A stretch of DNA of 56,141 nt, from contig JACQZQ010000070.1 in assembly GCA_016213785.1 (NCBI GenBank), positions 1-56,141 on the forward strand, read 5' to 3'. This stretch comes from Acidobacteriota bacterium (lineage in GTDB: Bacteria > Acidobacteriota > Blastocatellia > Chloracidobacteriales > JADJPF01). The notes beneath the pieces were generated by a model. It was not told where the DNA came from. It did not search any database and saw only the letters and a program-made list of their open reading frames with translations. A program made the position numbers and the translations under genes. This document shows, one piece after another, positions 9,244-40,809 of the stretch (positions within the stretch are counted from its first letter, which is position 1; every line of letters begins with the position of its first letter).

Positions 9244-9430
9244 GTTATCACCTCTTCTTAATTTGGCTTCTTATTTTGTAAATAAGTGAAGTATAGAGAA
9301 AAGTTACAAGGTAATACTTTTGCCCAAGTCTACTCTGGCTCCGAAATGAGGTCAAGAGAATCCTTGCAATAAAGACACAGAGAGACTTTTTCAGTAAAAA
9401 TGAGGTGTGTATTATACTTGTTTATATTAA

Positions 9431-10849
9431 CTAGTTTAGCAAGTTATTTGTAGTGCTACGTTTTAGTATTCTATCTAGAGTTTTACGATCAATGCCAAGC
9501 ACACGAGCAGCTTGAGATTTATTGCCACCTAGCTGATTTAAGATATTAATAACGTGTCTATATTCTACTTCTGCTAAACTCAGTAGACTTTCTGTACTAG
9601 GCAATGCTTGATCCTCTGGGTTGTTAATAAATAAATATGTATTTGATTTTTCTTTGATGTCTTTAGGCAAATCATCAGTAGTAATTTTATGGTGTTTTGC
9701 TAAAACTACAAGTTTTTCAACAACATGCCCTAATTGACGGACATTTCCAGGCCAATCATAATTTGATAGACAGTTAATAGCTTCTTCTGAAATTTCAACT
9801 TGTAATTGATTTTTATTTTTTTGTTTATTAAGAAAATATTCTATAAGTAGTGGAATATCAGCTTTTCTTTCTCTTAGAGGGGCAACTAAAAGTTCCACTA
9901 CTCTAAGGCGATAAAGTAGGTCTAGACGAAAGAGTTTTTCTTTAACAAGAGAATCTATATTTTGATTACTAGCAGCAATAACCCGAACATCAATCTTTTT
10001 AGCTTTTGATGCCCCAACAGAAAGAACTTCACCCTCCTGTAAAACACGCAGTAGTTTTGATTGAAAAGCTAAGCTAGTTTCAGTAATTTCATCTAAGAAT
10101 ATAGTTCCTTTATTTGCTTCAAGAAAAAGCCCTGGTTTATCAAATTGAGCGCCAGTAAAAGCTCCTTTAAGGTGTCCAAAGAGTTCTGTTTCAAGTAGTG
10201 ATTCTGTTAGAGCACCACAATTTAGAGCAACAAAAGGTTGGTTAAAACGATTGCTTAATTTATGAATTTGTTTTGCAATCATTTCTTTACCAACACCAGA
10301 TTCGCCTAAAATAAGTACGGTAGAGTCAGTTTTAGCCACTTTGCCAATTTGTTTAAATAGCTCTAGCATTACTGGGCTAGAGCCAACCAGTCTATCCCCA
10401 TCTATTTCTGAAAAAGGAAGTTGATCTCCTTTAGCTAGCTTATTGTTATTAGCGAGTGTAAGGTTACTACGCCTATCTAAGGCTGTTTTAACTATTGTTA
10501 TAAGCTCAGTTGCATTAAAGGGTTTTGTTAAATAATCTTGAGCACCGTTATTTATAGCCTTAGCAGCACCAGTAAGTGTTGCATGTGCGGTAATTAAAAT
10601 AACTTCTACTTTAGAATCTTTCTTTTTTATCTCCCTAAGTAATGTATCTCCATCAATATATGGCATTTGTACATCTGAGATAACTAAATCAATATCACCT
10701 TGTTCTAATCTTTTAAGTGCATCTTTGCCATTATTAACTGCAATAGTATCAAATCCTTCTTCTTGAAGAACCAAATCTATTAAAGATAAACAAGCTTCAT
10801 CATCATCAACTAGGAGTATTTTACCTGTTTGAAATGTTTCTTTAGTCAT
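9431..10849 (-). CDS. Sigma54-dependent response regulator (NtrC family)
   Basis: The 472 residues contain three domains in order. The receiver (about 10-125) has the acidic pair in VDDDEA, phospho-acceptor Asp59 in VISDVQMP, and a YLTKPFN lysine. The AAA+ sigma54-interaction domain (about 155-385) has Walker A GESGVGKE and the sigma54-contacting loop GAFTGA. The C-terminal Fis-type helix-turn-helix reads NKSQAARVLGIDRKTLDRIL. It should activate sigma54 promoters after phosphorylation. The start lies 11 bases after the stop of the hybrid kinase upstream, so the two are very probably co-transcribed as a cognate pair. Confidence 0.95.
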   Translation of the reverse strand: MTKETFQTGKILLVDDDEACLSLIDLVLQEEGFDTIAVNNGKDALKRLEQGDIDLVISDVQMPYIDGDTLLREIKKKDSKVEVILITAHATLTGAAKAINNGAQDYLTKPFNATELITIVKTALDRRSNLTLANNNKLAKGDQLPFSEIDGDRLVGSSPVMLELFKQIGKVAKTDSTVLILGESGVGKEMIAKQIHKLSNRFNQPFVALNCGALTESLLETELFGHLKGAFTGAQFDKPGLFLEANKGTIFLDEITETSLAFQSKLLRVLQEGEVLSVGASKAKKIDVRVIAASNQNIDSLVKEKLFRLDLLYRLRVVELLVAPLRERKADIPLLIEYFLNKQKNKNQLQVEISEEAINCLSNYDWPGNVRQLGHVVEKLVVLAKHHKITTDDLPKDIKEKSNTYLFINNPEDQALPSTESLLSLAEVEYRHVINILNQLGGNKSQAARVLGIDRKTLDRILKRSTTNNLLN

Positions 10850-10860
10850 AATCTACCTAT

Positions 10861-13800
10861 CTACTCACTTAATATTTCCTTTAAGGATTTTAATATTGCT
10901 TCTGCTGTATAAGGCTTAGTTAATTTTTTTACTGTGACAGACAAAGTATCTAGTTTAGTATAAACACTTAGGTCATTACTAGTAACGATTATCTTTACTC
11001 GAGGGTTAGCCTTTTTTAATGAAGAAATCACAATAGCACTATCAAGTTCAACAACAAACATATCAATTATAACAGCATCAACATGTTGATGGTTATCAAA
11101 AAAAATCGCAACAGCATCAGCCCCATTGCTAGCTGGTAAAACTCTGTAATTATATGCCTCTAGAGTAGTTTTAGAAATTTCTAAAGTAGATATTTCAGAA
11201 TCAATTAGCAGTATTGATTGATTATTACCAACAAGTGATTCATTTTTCTTAGTAAAGGACTGCTTAGTTTCTTCATCGCTTATTGCAGGTAAATATATAG
11301 AAAAAGTAGTTCCTTTATTTAGTTGGCTATTAACCCTAATAAAACCCTTATGTTTTTCTATTATACTAGCAACCATTGCTAATCCTAAACCTGTTCCATT
11401 AGCTCCTTTAGTTGTAAAAAAAGGTTCAAATATTTTTTTAACATGTTCTGTATTAATACCAACCCCAGTATCTGAAATAGAGATTTGAACAAAGGGTGTA
11501 GCCTCTTTTAATTCGTTAAACTCTTCTAGGTCATCAAGTAGTTCATTTTTTACTGTTATGGTAAGTATTCCTCCCTCAGGCATAGCTTCTCGTGCATTAA
11601 CACAAAGATTCATAAGCACTTGAAAGATCTGTGTAGCATTTGCTAAGACTAACCAGGTTTTTGGAGAATAATTAGAATAAACTCTAATACTTTGAGGAAA
11701 ACTGACTTTAATCATATTAAGTAGTTCATCAAGAACATTTTGAAGATTAATAGTGGTTTGATTAGTCTCTATACCTTTAGCAAAAGAAAGAATCTGCTTA
11801 ACCATCTCAGACCCTCGTTTAGTAGATGATTCTACTCTTTCAATAAGTCGCATGCTACGTTCATCTGCACGTTTTTTAAGCAGATCGAGTGAGAGCATAA
11901 TTGGGGTCAAGAGGTTATTAAGATCATGAGCAATACCACTAGCTAATGAACCTAGGTTTTCCATACGTTGTGTTCTTAAGAATTGAGTTTCCAGCTTCTT
12001 TTTTTCTGTAATATTAGTATTAACAAGTAAAAATGTTTTAGGGTTTTTGAAATTATCGTAAATTAATGTCCAATGGCTAAGGATAACCATATCATTTCCG
12101 TTAATATCTTGGCTAGTAATCTCACCTACCCATTCATTGGAGCTAAGAACTGTATCTATAATGTTATTAATTAGGCCAAAGTCTTGATTTGTAATTAGTT
12201 CAGCAATAGAAGCTCCAAGTGCTCTTTCTCTATCAATTCCATATAAACTCGATGCCCCTCTACTCCAAAAAACTATCTTTTGTTTTAAGTCACAGGCGAT
12301 TATAGCATCATTAGATGCATCAATTAGTTTTAAGTGTTCTCCTAAACGGTCTTCATCTTGTTTTCGTTTAATTGCTGTTACAAGTGTATGAGCAATTGTT
12401 TGTAAAAAATTAGCTTCATTGCTTGTAAAGAGTCTTTTAGTACGGGTAAAAGCTCCTAAAAAACCAAAAACTTCATTATCTATATATAACACTACACTAA
12501 TTCCACTAGTAAAATTTTGTAGCTTAAAAAATATAGGGATATTAAAGCGTAAGTCTGTTTCTATATCATCAATAATAAGAGGCCCTGTAGAACCTAAGAG
12601 CATATTTACTAAAGAGTTAGAATTTACAGATGCAACGCTTAAGCTAGTTGAATCAGAGGATGAAGAATTTTTAATAAGCCCAAAGCTTTCTGGCCTTAAA
12701 CATAGCGTATTATCTTTATCAAATTCTAGTATAAAACAACAATCAATAGTTAAAACTTCTTTTATAGCATTTATAAAATATTCCATTAATTTAGAAACGT
12801 CTACTTCTAGCAAAGCTTGTCGTCCTAATCTAACTAATAAAGATTGTTGACGTGCTCTTGTTAGTAATTCTTGTTGAGTAAGCTTTTGTTGATTTTCTAA
12901 TTTTGTTTTTTGTTGGATATGTTGATAGCTATCATAAATTATTCCAAGAACTTCTATTGCAGGTTCTAGTAGCTTTATATTTTCTTGTTCATAGGCAAAT
13001 GAGCTATTAGCTAATACAAGTACACTGGTTATTGCATTTTGGCATTTTATCGGCATACTAATAAAGTTTCGTAGCTTAAGTATTTCGCTTGTATAAGATA
13101 GATTAAGATTTTTTATTTCTGCGCTTTTAATTTGAGTTAGAGAAGTTGATAAAGTTTTGCTAATTAAGTAAAAAAGCTGGCGTTCTAAAGATATATCTTC
13201 AAAATCTCTTACGTCATCTTCTATTTCCTTAAACATAGCTCTATTGGTTTCAACTTCTATCATCTCATTAGTATTTGTAATAACTTGCAATTTTAGGTTA
13301 TCTGGAAAAAAACCAAGTGCAGCAAATTGGCTTTTAGTAACTTTAGAGATAGTTTGTAAGATTGGTTGTAAGGATTTTTTTAAATCATGTGCCTGCAAGA
13401 ATGTTGCCATAGATTCGGATATGCTAGATAGTATAGTTGTTTGTTCTTGTAGCTGGTTATTTGTTATTTTTTGCTCAGATATATCTCTAACTACTAGTGT
13501 AAGAAATAGTTCCTGGTGAGAAAATAGTTTTGAAATAGCAATATCAGCTAAAAATTCACTTCTATCTTTACGCAATCCTATAAGCCCTTGTCTATTATCT
13601 GAATATTGAAAAGGTTTGGGGCTACTTATAAACTGCTCAACATATTTATTAAAAACGCTATGAAATTTACCTAGGATTAAAATATTGAAGGGTTTACCTA
13701 GAGTTTCTTTTTTAGAGTAGCCAAATATTTTTTCTGAATTGTTATTAAAAAAACATATTTCTTGTTTTTTATTAATAACAATAACTGCATCCCCAGATAA

Positions 13801-37101: not shown

Positions 37102-37552
37102 AAAATTATAATTAATTTATAAATTTTTGGCTTTGTTCATTTGGCTATACTCTTCTACATAACGATGTATTTTGCTCGCCTAATACTTAGGAGAGGAAGC
37201 TATATGTCAACCATTTCAAAACACTGAAAAGGGATTATTATCTATGTCCAACTTGTTTTCAAAGAACGGAAATGACTTACCCAAGCAAAAAAAGTCATAA
37301 CCCCTTTGTTATCATTACGTGATGTAAATGCACATGATCGTGTACTTTTTACATATACAGGCTAACTTATACAATATTAAAGAGTTAATGAGTGACTGTA
37401 GACTCTATTCTACAAGAGATGTGATCCTCTTTATTTATAATAAGTTAGCTATACTAGCAATAGATGTGCAAGACATTTTTTCACCTCTAAAAAAGTGATG
37501 TGCAAAAATGTCTTTGTAACTTCTCTAGAATGTGTTATTTATAGACCCAGCA
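37102..37552 (+). promoter_or_regulatory. CRISPR leader region
   Basis: This A+T-rich, gene-free stretch of 451 bases lies directly upstream of repeat 1. Repeat orientation (3' end ATTGAAAC) puts the leader on this side. An A+T-rich palindrome just after the dioxygenase stop (about 37106-37131, ending TTTTT) may terminate that gene. A perfect TATAAT occurs at 37436-37441 without a good -35 box. AAGACATTTTTTCAC (37470-37484) and its near-complement at 37495-37514 form a long imperfect hairpin, 39 bases before the first repeat. Two peptide frames of 7 and 18 codons here do not look like genes. Confidence 0.65.
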
Positions 37553-40020
37553 GTTGAATGGCTTATCGAACCTATGAGGAATTGAAACTTCTTTTATAAA
37601 ATCTATATTAAATAGCATTTTTTAATGTTGAATGGCTTATCGAACCTATGAGGAATTGAAACTGATTACTTCCTGCATTTGAAAGCCATCAATCTAAAAA
37701 GTTGAATGGCTTATCGAACCTATGAGGAATTGAAACATCCACCAGACATTGGCTCACGAAACCACAATTATTATGTTGAATGGCTTATCGAACCTATGAG
37801 GAATTGAAACAAGATAATAAAAATACATGATAACCTCCTTTACCATTCGTTGAATGGCTTATCGAACCTATGAGGAATTGAAACTTCTGATATGACAATT
37901 GTGCTTCCTGCGTGTTCGTGGTGTTGAATGGCTTATCGAACCTATGAGGAATTGAAACTCTATATCCAAAATTCTCGTTTGTCTTTATGATTTTATGAGT
38001 TGAATGGCTTATCGAACCTATGAGGAATTGAAACTTCGCCTGATATCCCAGCACTTCCTTTTCTATTTGGCCGTTGAATGGCTTATCGAACCTATGAGGA
38101 ATTGAAACTAATTTTTATCCTGCTTGGTAATGCGCTGCACCTGACGTGTTGAATGGCTTATCGAACCTATGAGGAATTGAAACCAGTGACATTCTTTGAA
38201 TACCATGTTAGTTGCTCTCTCGTTGAATGGCTTATCGAACCTATGAGGAATTGAAACAAGAAATAGTTAAAATCTGTATGACCTGCCATCTCAGTAAGTT
38301 GAATGGCTTATCGAACCTATGAGGAATTGAAACTTTCAATGCCTTGATGAGTAACTATGGCAGAAGAATTTGTTGAATGGCTTATCGAACCTATGAGGAA
38401 TTGAAACTTGCAGAAAATGATCTTCACCTTGATTTGCAGATCATTGTTGAATGGCTTATCGAACCTATGAGGAATTGAAACTGCATAATTGCCTCCAAAT
38501 AATTTTCTAATCCTTGTTGTTGAATGGCTTATCGAACCTATGAGGAATTGAAACTTGTTCCATTAACTTCCTGATATGTCACAAAAATGTCCAGTTGAAT
38601 GGCTTATCGAACCTATGAGGAATTGAAACTTTGCATATCAGCTAATTGATGTTGGTAGTATTCTTAAGTTGAATGGCTTATCGAACCTATGAGGAATTGA
38701 AACATCAATGGCTTGGATCAGGATTCCGATGATCTGGGGTTGAATGGCTTATCGAACCTATGAGGAATTGAAACTCTGATCTTACTGTTAAATACTTTGT
38801 ATCTCCTTCCGGTTGAATGGCTTATCGAACCTATGAGGAATTGAAACAAGTAACCTTCTCTCCCCCTTTGAGAGGAAACTGCTGTTGAATGGCTTATCGA
38901 ACCTATGAGGAATTGAAACTTTGCAGCTTCTTCGCGAGCTGCTTTAGCTTCATTTTCGTTGAATGGCTTATCGAACCTATGAGGAATTGAAACTCATTTC
39001 CCTTTGACTTTTCAGTACAGGCTGCCCTGGTTGTTGAATGGCTTATCGAACCTATGAGGAATTGAAACTAGAAGAAGAGATGTCTGGGACTGAATTTTGA
39101 TCCCCAGTTGAATGGCTTATCGAACCTATGAGGAATTGAAACCAAAGATCGGGGCTGCTGGAAATTAACTTGATCGCTGTTGAATGGCTTATCGAACCTA
39201 TGAGGAATTGAAACTCATCAGACGAAACCCAATACCTTTTACTGGCCTATCTGTTGAATGGCTTATCGAACCTATGAGGAATTGAAACCCCATTGACCCA
39301 GTGGTATCTGCGCCTATGGTTAGTAGTTGAATGGCTTATCGAACCTATGAGGAATTGAAACTCAAGTCCCTAACTTGACTAAATTGGTTAGTAACATAGT
39401 TGAATGGCTTATCGAACCTATGAGGAATTGAAACGTTATTTCTATAGGCATTGACTAACTGATCGTAAAGTTGAATGGCTTATCGAACCTATGAGGAATT
39501 GAAACTTTGCTGTGAGATGATTAGCTCCCGTTCCCGCTACTTGTTGAATGGCTTATCGAACCTATGAGGAATTGAAACTTAAGTAAATACTGAATCCGCT
39601 TTCGATATTCATCCAGTTGAATGGCTTATCGAACCTATGAGGAATTGAAACTCTTTCCAGCACCTTTATATTGGTGTCATTCTGGAGAGGTTGAATGGCT
39701 TATCGAACCTATGAGGAATTGAAACTCCAGAGGATAACCTTAGATTCCCTGTAACTTTATTTGTTGAATGGCTTATCGAACCTATGAGGAATTGAAACTC
39801 AAATTCCTTTTATAATATGGTTTTATTTTGATTTTTCGTTGAATGGCTTATCGAACCTATGAGGAATTGAAACATGTGGGTGAAGAAGACGATTGAGATT
39901 CGTTCACTTAAGGTTGAATGGCTTATCGAACCTATGAGGAATTGAAACACATTGCCATTTATGCCGAGGGACGATACTATCCTTGTTGAATGGCTTATCG
40001 AACCTATGAGGAATAATTCT
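37553..40020 (+). CRISPR. CRISPR array, 34 repeat units and 33 spacers
   Basis: There are 33 identical 36-base repeats (begin GTTGAATGGCTTATCG, end GAGGAATTGAAAC). The first is at 37553-37588 and the last intact one at 39913-39948. A 34th unit at 39985-40020 is intact for 30 bases and altered in the final 6. Spacers are 35-40 bases, mostly 37-38. The ATTGAAAC 3' end is the usual 8-base crRNA tag and fixes transcription as left to right. Repeats have only weak internal pairing, as in many type I and III systems whose Cas6 reads unstructured repeats. Only cas6 is adjacent. Spacers are pyrimidine-rich on this strand, and 22 of 33 begin with T. Confidence 0.99.
39985..40020 (+). repeat. Degenerate terminal CRISPR repeat that carries the cas6 ribosome site
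   Basis: It matches the repeat for bases 1-30, then reads AATTCT in place of TGAAAC. Its length slot is preserved, so the cas6 ATG at 40021 falls exactly at base 37. GAGGA (40008-40012), part of the repeat, is the Shine-Dalgarno with 8 bases to the ATG. The expected Cas6 cut (before the last 8 bases) lies between 40012 and 40013, immediately after it. Confidence 0.9.
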
Positions 40021-40809
40021 ATGCGTATTAGAATAAGTTTGGCAGCAGAGAAATACCCAGCATCAATACCTCTAAATCACCATATTCTGGCAGGATTTAT
40101 TTATGAAACTATTTCTTTGGTTTCTCCAAAACTAGCTACTCTTCTGCATAATGAAGGTTTACGCTCTGGCTTTGCTAATGAGACTGACAAAAGTTTTAAG
40201 TTTTTTGTTTTTGCCCTTCCAGAACTACCCAATTATTACTTTAGTGGAGAATATAAATGTTTTGACCAAGGTTTAGTTTATTGGCAAATTAGTTCTCCTG
40301 TTTCAGACATTATTGATTCTATCGTTGCTAGTTTGGCTATAAATAGCTCTGTACGTATTGGTAGATCTTTATTTTCTGTCACTGATATAGAATTTATCCC
40401 TACACCTATTTTTACTCAAGAAATGCGTTTTATTGCTTTATCTCCTTTAACTGTGTCAACAAGCTGGCAAGATATTGATAGAAAACGAGTTAAATATTAT
40501 CTTAGAGCAAATGAAAAAGAGTTTGGAGAGTTAGTAGTATCAAACCTACTTGCCAAATATTATGCTCTTAATGGAAAAAAAGTAGATGATAGCCAACTTC
40601 ACTTTGAATTTGACGAAGACTACATAAGGTCAGTAGGTGGTTTTGATAGCAAAAAGATTACTAGGCTTATTCGTTATGGTAATACTGAAATAAAGAGCGT
40701 TTTTGCTCCTTTTATAGTAAGAGGAAACCCTGAGTTAATTTGGCTTGGTTGGGAAAGTGGGTTTGGTAATAGTAATTCTCAAGGCTTTGGAATGGCTGGT
40801 ATAAGCTGA
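40021..40809 (+). CDS. cas6: CRISPR-associated endoribonuclease Cas6
   Basis: The ATG at 40021 starts MRIRISLAAEKYP, the usual first beta-strand of Cas6; the frame extending left to 39952 is only spacer and repeat read as protein. The 262 residues show IPLNHHILAGFIYETI, then LLHNEGLRS with His43 in the position of the catalytic histidine of Cas6, followed by FKFFVFALPEL. The C-terminal glycine-rich loop reads GFGNSNSQGFGMAGI (247-261). Cas6 cuts pre-crRNA within each repeat to leave an 8-base 5' tag. The gene is at the trailer end of the array, in the same direction, and may be read from the array transcript. No cas1, cas2 or effector genes are seen. Confidence 0.93.
   Translation: MRIRISLAAEKYPASIPLNHHILAGFIYETISLVSPKLATLLHNEGLRSGFANETDKSFKFFVFALPELPNYYFSGEYKCFDQGLVYWQISSPVSDIIDSIVASLAINSSVRIGRSLFSVTDIEFIPTPIFTQEMRFIALSPLTVSTSWQDIDRKRVKYYLRANEKEFGELVVSNLLAKYYALNGKKVDDSQLHFEFDEDYIRSVGGFDSKKITRLIRYGNTEIKSVFAPFIVRGNPELIWLGWESGFGNSNSQGFGMAGIS

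What the first reader, a model, noticed from the sequence alone, without database searches (positions are those of the whole stretch)
37589..39984. Spacers are strongly biased to the strand antisense to coding sequence
My hand count over the 33 spacers gives about 530 purines in 1244 bases on the transcribed strand (43%), with 26 spacers below half. Bacterial mRNAs are normally purine-rich, so crRNAs would mostly be complementary to target mRNA. Many spacers have open frames on the opposite strand with phage-like reading (for example LTIGADTTGSMG, YVTNQFSQVRDL, ENEAKAAREEAA). Such bias is expected when interference or acquisition acts on RNA (type III, RT-Cas1).
Basis: partly seen in the sequence, partly recalled or inferred. 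Interest (0 to 1): 0.65.

Follow-up and report, generated by a model that had tools for sequence, protein, structure and literature searches.

The report
Type III CRISPR spacers antisense to genes
A 33-spacer CRISPR memory bank stores most of its virus snippets in the orientation that lets its guide RNAs pair with viral messenger RNA, which is what is already known for this RNA-sensing (type III) kind of CRISPR system.

Summary
The count is exact: 33 spacers, 530 purines in 1244 bases (42.6%), 26 of 33 below half. It exceeds chance (per-spacer t-test p=4e-5; sign test p=5e-4) and is not an end effect. Type I or unassigned arrays from the same genome and phylum sit at 48-51%.

No protospacer was found, so the decisive strand count could not be made. 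Indirect evidence favours the antisense reading. A codon model puts 73-79% of spacers antisense to coding sequence (95% interval 0.51-0.92); the genome's own type I-B array gives about 0.35 (0.12-0.65). Two spacers carry a ribosome-binding site plus ATG on the antisense strand, none on the sense strand.

The array has only cas6 beside it. Its repeat (30/36 identical), leader and cas6 (46-48% identical) match an Acidobacteria MAG where they follow a type III-D operon. Of two III-D operons in this genome, the closest to that one lies on contigs C36/C40, with a reverse transcriptase beside a disrupted cas1.

The best explanation is selection by transcript-dependent type III-D interference. RNA-templated acquisition is not needed: published type III arrays average 65% (up to 88%), and RT-Cas1 orients spacers only marginally. 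A new instance of a known phenomenon.

The parts
37473..37552 (+). Leader: A+T-rich region upstream of the first repeat; conserved GATGTGCAAAA and TGTG.TATTTA.AG blocks
   Evidence: Aligned with the leaders of two arrays of the related MAG
37553..40014 (+). CRISPR array: 33 exact 36-nt repeats GTTGAATGGCTTATCGAACCTATGAGGAATTGAAAC, 33 spacers of 35-40 nt, truncated terminal repeat 39985-40014
   Evidence: the repeat occurs nowhere else in the genome or in 97 relatives
37811..37848 (-). Spacer 4: reverse strand reads AAAGGAGGTTATCATG, a Shine-Dalgarno and start codon, so the crRNA is antisense to a translation start
   Evidence: 2 antisense and 0 sense such motifs in the array (shuffle P=0.017 for 2 or more antisense)
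38482..38518 (-). Spacer 13: reverse strand reads GGAGGCAATTATG, a Shine-Dalgarno and start codon
   Evidence: partial match to a start region of the host's own genome, G000:C37:1120-1146
39435..39469 (-). Spacer 26: reverse strand encodes YDQLVNAYRN, found in frame in the predicted tape measure protein of IMG/VR contig L191 with only synonymous differences over those ten residues
   Evidence: suggestive only
40021..40809 (+). cas6 (262 aa), starts 6 nt after the truncated terminal repeat
   Evidence: Pfam PF01881 E=7.9e-27, PADLOC Cas6b 4.8e-49; 46-48% identical to the cas6 after the related III-D array

Best explanation
The array is the detached crRNA-producing half (array plus cas6) of a type III-D CRISPR system whose effector operon is elsewhere in the genome, most likely contigs C36/C40. 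Type III complexes act only when the crRNA pairs with a transcript, so spacers in the antisense orientation are the ones that protect and are retained. This yields spacers mostly antisense to coding sequence and hence pyrimidine-rich. Shown here: the base bias, the excess of antisense coding potential, and the kinship of repeat, leader and cas6 to a III-D locus. Inferred: that C36/C40 uses this array, that the targets are phage mRNAs, and that selection rather than oriented acquisition causes the bias.
For: Purine bias confirmed. Codon model: antisense fraction 0.73 (0.51-0.89) with host genes and 0.79 (0.57-0.92) with phage genes, within-spacer shuffle z=2.2-2.7; own I-B array 0.33-0.35 (0.12-0.65). 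SD+ATG antisense only. Repeat 30/36 identical, leader conserved, and cas6 46-48% identical to an array+cas6 directly after a csx1-cas10-cas7-csx10-cas7-csx19-cas7 III-D operon in MAG RBC074. That operon is 35-50% identical to own C36/C40 and 24-32% to the other own III-D operon on C103. Other III-linked arrays of the phylum pool to 47.7% purine (n=115, p=0.008); type I or unassigned arrays to 49.7% (n=297). Literature: type III spacers match the coding strand in 65% on average, 88% in Moraxella III-B (PMC8482600); in Thermus the bias arises by selection (PMC7515739).
Against: No protospacer found, so orientation rests on base composition and coding potential. The two arrays of the nearest relative are not significantly biased (48.0% and 49.1% purine; codon model 0.57 and 0.59 with wide intervals). 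The window array is more extreme than other III arrays (p=0.005). The C40 operon shows signs of decay: cas1 disrupted, and Cas10 reads GGGED where the relative has GGDD.
Confidence: 0.72

Rival explanations
1. Acquisition itself is oriented: the reverse transcriptase next to cas1 on C40 copies phage mRNA and the integrase inserts cDNA mostly in the antisense direction.
For: A CRISPR-associated-type RT gene lies beside cas1 in the III-D locus most related to this array's kin, and a related RT lies near the III-D operon of G026. RNA-derived spacers in Marinomonas show a moderate antisense bias without interference (PMC5576922).
Against: In Marinomonas the bias from RNA is only marginal. Here cas1 on C40 breaks off after about 54 matched residues, so new acquisition by that module is doubtful today. 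G022 has the same array type but no RT hit in the 55 kb read around it.
Confidence: 0.1
2. The bias is a base preference of the integrase or of spacer capture (T-rich, T at the first position) that has nothing to do with genes.
For: First spacer base is T in 22 of 33 (12.1 expected, p=4e-4), with the same tendency in the own I-B array (9/17) and a G022 III-D array (10/19). Purine content is lower than antisense host genes would give.
Against: Removing the ends changes little (43.5%). Shuffling bases inside each spacer removes the antisense coding signal (z=2.2-2.7). The own I-B array shares the first-T habit but has 48.3% purine and no antisense signal.
Confidence: 0.13
3. Chance: 33 spacers from a few phages whose genes happen to run one way or to be very purine-rich.
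For: Small sample; arrays vary; the codon-model interval reaches 0.51.
Against: Sign test p=5e-4 and t-test p=4e-5; five larger control arrays of 44-85 spacers lie at 47.8-50.8%. Spacer insertion orientation would still have to be non-random.
Confidence: 0.05

Closest known systems
Type III arrays with coding-strand (mRNA) targeting bias, Vink et al. 2021 (PMC8482600)
   Same: Bias towards crRNAs complementary to mRNA; estimated 73-79% here against a 65% average and 88% in Moraxella III-B
   Different: Here inferred from base composition and codon statistics, not from mapped protospacers
Thermus thermophilus type III adaptation to phages (Artamonova et al. 2020, PMC7515739)
   Same: Type III system; bias explained by survival of cells with transcript-targeting spacers
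   Different: III-A/III-B without RT, observed in an infection; here a static III-D array in a draft genome
Marinomonas mediterranea RT-Cas1 type III-B (PMC5576922)
   Same: An RT gene beside cas1 in a type III locus of the same cell
   Different: There RT-Cas1 is fused and active; here RT and cas1 are separate genes, cas1 is disrupted, and its link to this array is inferred
III-D locus of Acidobacteria MAG RBC074 (CADECP010000001.1 = G022:C1)
   Same: Repeat 30/36 identical, leader conserved, cas6 right after the array, III-D effectors 35-50% identical to own C36/C40
   Different: There effector operon, array and cas6 are contiguous; in the window the effector operon is missing and a tryptophan dioxygenase gene precedes the leader

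Membership tests
Type III-D CRISPR-Cas (array part) | Array repeat and cas6 of a III-D locus | tested here: met
   Repeat 30/36 identical and cas6 46-48% identical to those of a III-D locus
Type III-D CRISPR-Cas (array part) | Cas10 and Csx10 effector genes in the same genome | tested here: met
   C103 and C36/C40 carry Cas10d and Cas5_IIId/Csx10
Type III-D CRISPR-Cas (array part) | Effector operon adjacent to the array | tested here: not met
   Only cas6 is adjacent; the window is contig C51 and no other cas gene was found in it. So the array is filed as a detached part, not as a complete III-D locus
Type III-D CRISPR-Cas (array part) | crRNAs complementary to target transcripts | tested here: inconclusive
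   Codon model 0.73-0.79, interval 0.51-0.92; no protospacers
RT-associated (RNA-acquiring) CRISPR system | RT fused or adjacent to cas1 | tested here: met
   RT at C40:373-1800 next to cas1 at about 138-299; not adjacent to this array
RT-associated (RNA-acquiring) CRISPR system | Intact Cas1 integrase with the RT | tested here: not met
   cas1 on C40 matches only positions 1-54 of 283 and then runs into unrelated sequence at the contig end
Type I-B array with PAM | Repeat of the genome's I-B locus | tested here: not met
   The I-B repeat GTTGAAGTGCCCATTCCATAAGAACAAGGATTGAAAC differs in the middle and its Cas6 shows no blastp match to the window Cas6
Type I-B array with PAM | Fixed PAM beside protospacers | not testable with these tools
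   No protospacers

The most novel reading that the evidence does not exclude
The array was filled from phage mRNA by the RT-Cas1 module with oriented insertion, so that antisense orientation is written at acquisition rather than selected afterwards. That would be a fidelity mechanism that the Marinomonas work looked for and did not find.
Probability: 0.07. Interest if true: 0.65.

Novelty: new member of a known kind. Interest (0 to 1): 0.25.

Why it matters
It shows that the type III coding-strand bias can be read from an array whose targets are unknown, using base composition and codon statistics with the cell's own type I array as a control. It also ties an apparently orphan array to a III-D effector operon elsewhere in the same genome. 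The phenomenon itself is already established.

Tried and rejected
Protospacer searches: INPHARED phages (spacer matches with E 0.7-9 only), plasmids (none), 396 genomes of the phylum (partial matches only), IMG/VR with back-translated patterns for seven spacers plus one concatenated peptide query. Spacer 33 matches 24 of 27 bases of a crAss-like phage terminase gene in the sense orientation (L192/L193), but such a match is expected by chance in a collection of that size (own estimate) and the residues after PFMPR differ, so it was not counted. Spacer 15 shares 21 exact bases with a Bacillus phage, chance level in the full collection. Spacer 13's partial match to the host (C37) is a shared ribosome-binding-site region, not a self-targeting protospacer. 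The repeat (up to 3 mismatches) is absent from 97 relatives. The concatenated-peptide route failed because several of the patterns chosen spanned junctions between spacers. The first codon-model run included cas6 out of frame; it was repeated correctly with the same result. The first tblastn for cas6 used the same wrong frame; cas6 kinship rests. One search stopped with an error after the window and C103 results; the rest was done.

Full report
OBSERVATION. The array at 37553-40014 has 33 identical 36-nt repeats, a truncated terminal repeat and 33 spacers with 530 purines in 1244 bases (42.6%); 26 spacers are below half, one is at half and six are above. The per-spacer t-test gives p=4e-5 and the sign test p=5e-4. 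The bias survives removal of three bases at each end (43.5%) and is the same in leader-proximal and leader-distal halves (0.430, 0.423). The leader is on the left, conserved with the leaders of related arrays, and the degenerate repeat is on the right, so the + strand is the crRNA strand.

CONTROLS. In the same genome, the type I-B array on C103 (17 spacers) has 48.3% purine with 8 below and 7 above half. Five arrays of related genomes with 30-nt GGAATTGAAAC-ending repeats lie at 47.8-50.8% (44-85 spacers each). These were chosen by repeat ending; one (G210) has Cas7b, Cas5b and Cas3 hits, the others only weaker or no I-B hits, so they are 'type I or unassigned'. Arrays next to III-D Cas10 genes in the phylum pool to 47.7% (115 spacers, p=0.008 against 50%), the other arrays to 49.7% (297 spacers); the difference is modest (one-sided p=0.04) and the window array is the most extreme of the sizeable ones. 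For four III-linked arrays I took the orientation from the ATTGCGAC or ATTGAGAC repeat end, which is an inference.

IS IT REALLY ANTISENSE TO CODING SEQUENCE? Purine content alone is an imperfect proxy. Host genes here are 52% purine, so fully antisense fragments of them would average 48.1%. Four AT-rich phages have 54.6-58.4% purine coding strands, and only towards the upper part of that range does 42.6% fit an antisense fraction below one comfortably. I therefore built a codon model that assigns the strand of 37-nt coding fragments with about 85% accuracy in cross-validation. For the window it gives an antisense fraction of 0.73 (0.51-0.89) with host genes and 0.79 (0.57-0.92) with phage genes; shuffling bases within spacers removes the signal (z=2.2-2.7). 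The own I-B array gives 0.33-0.35 (0.12-0.65). Independently, spacers 4 and 13 contain a Shine-Dalgarno followed by ATG on the reverse strand (AAGGAGGTTATCATG, GGAGGCAATTATG) and no spacer has one on the forward strand. The I-B array also has one such antisense motif and no sense one, so this sign is weak on its own. Spacer 26 reads YDQLVNAYRN on its reverse strand; an IMG/VR contig with phage portal and major head proteins encodes the same ten residues in frame in a predicted tape measure protein with only synonymous differences. This is suggestive of one antisense target family.

WHAT SYSTEM IS IT? The window (contig C51) holds only cas6 beside the array. The genome has a I-B locus and a III-D operon on C103, a second III-D operon split over C36 and C40 with an RT gene beside cas1, and a small I-E locus on C83/C131. 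Cas1 on C40 matches only the first 54 positions of the family before the reading runs into unrelated sequence at the contig end; I read this as an insertion, which is an inference. A GTDB-wide scan for the repeat core found one other species, Acidobacteria MAG RBC074, with two arrays. One of them lies between a III-D operon and a cas6 in one orientation. Repeat identity is 30/36 (counted on the alignment), cas6 identity 46-48%. The III-D proteins of that locus are 47% (both Cas10 halves), 40, 50 and 35% identical to those on own C36/C40 but only 32, 24, 26 and 29% to those on own C103. The window array plus cas6 is therefore best read as the detached array of the C36/C40 III-D system.

HOW IT WORKS. 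By established knowledge, type III complexes bind a transcript complementary to the crRNA; spacers in the wrong orientation are useless to them. In Thermus, spacers are taken from both strands and selection then gives a very strong bias (PMC7515739). Across databases type III spacers match the coding strand in 65% on average, up to 88% in one group (PMC8482600). RT-Cas1 of Marinomonas gives only a marginal antisense preference when interference is removed (PMC5576922). The window array fits this known pattern, and selection at the interference step is the most economical cause. An extra component remains: first-base T in 22 of 33 spacers, also seen in the I-B array (9/17) and the III-D array of RBC074 (10/19), possibly a trace of the integrase.

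LIMITS. A sense-oriented 24/27 match of spacer 33 to a crAss-like terminase gene is at chance level for a collection of that size by my estimate. The codon-model interval is wide. The two arrays of the nearest relative show no significant bias of their own.

VERDICT. Observation confirmed; interpretation partly supported: the array is probably type III and mostly antisense, but the RT is not needed to explain it. Known phenomenon, new instance.

Noticed in passing
window 39985-40024: The truncated terminal repeat ends 6 nt before the cas6 start codon and its GAGGAA could serve as the cas6 ribosome-binding site. cas6 is therefore probably translated from array read-through, near its own cleavage site, which could allow autoregulation.
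   Followed up: no
L023 (G000:C40) 373-1800: The CRISPR-type reverse transcriptase has an insertion of roughly 110 residues between its conserved halves (profile matches at 7-179 and 292-404). A related RT near the III-D operon of G026 (L188:404-1762) shows a similar gap.
   Followed up: no
L023 (G000:C40) 10071-10922: The C40 Cas10 reads FGGGEDITF where C103 and G022 Cas10 read GGDDVTF, so its cyclic-oligoadenylate synthase motif may be altered (or an assembly error); cas1 of the same locus is disrupted.
   Followed up: partly
window spacers; L022 array; L185 array: First spacer base is T in 22/33, 9/17 and 10/19 spacers, with G nearly absent, in arrays of different systems; possibly a trace of a shared integrase or a PAM.
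   Followed up: partly
L165:3940-4030 (Paenibacillus phage Scottie, MH460825.1): An intergenic stretch holds two CRISPR-repeat-like units ending in GGAATTGAAAC about 39 nt apart, which look like RNA anti-CRISPR (Racr) solitary repeats; the phage stretch matches the window repeats at about 92%.
   Followed up: no
L024 (G000:C83) 9337-9548 and L025 (G000:C131): A I-E system with only 3 spacers, its cas1 split by contig ends or decay.
   Followed up: no
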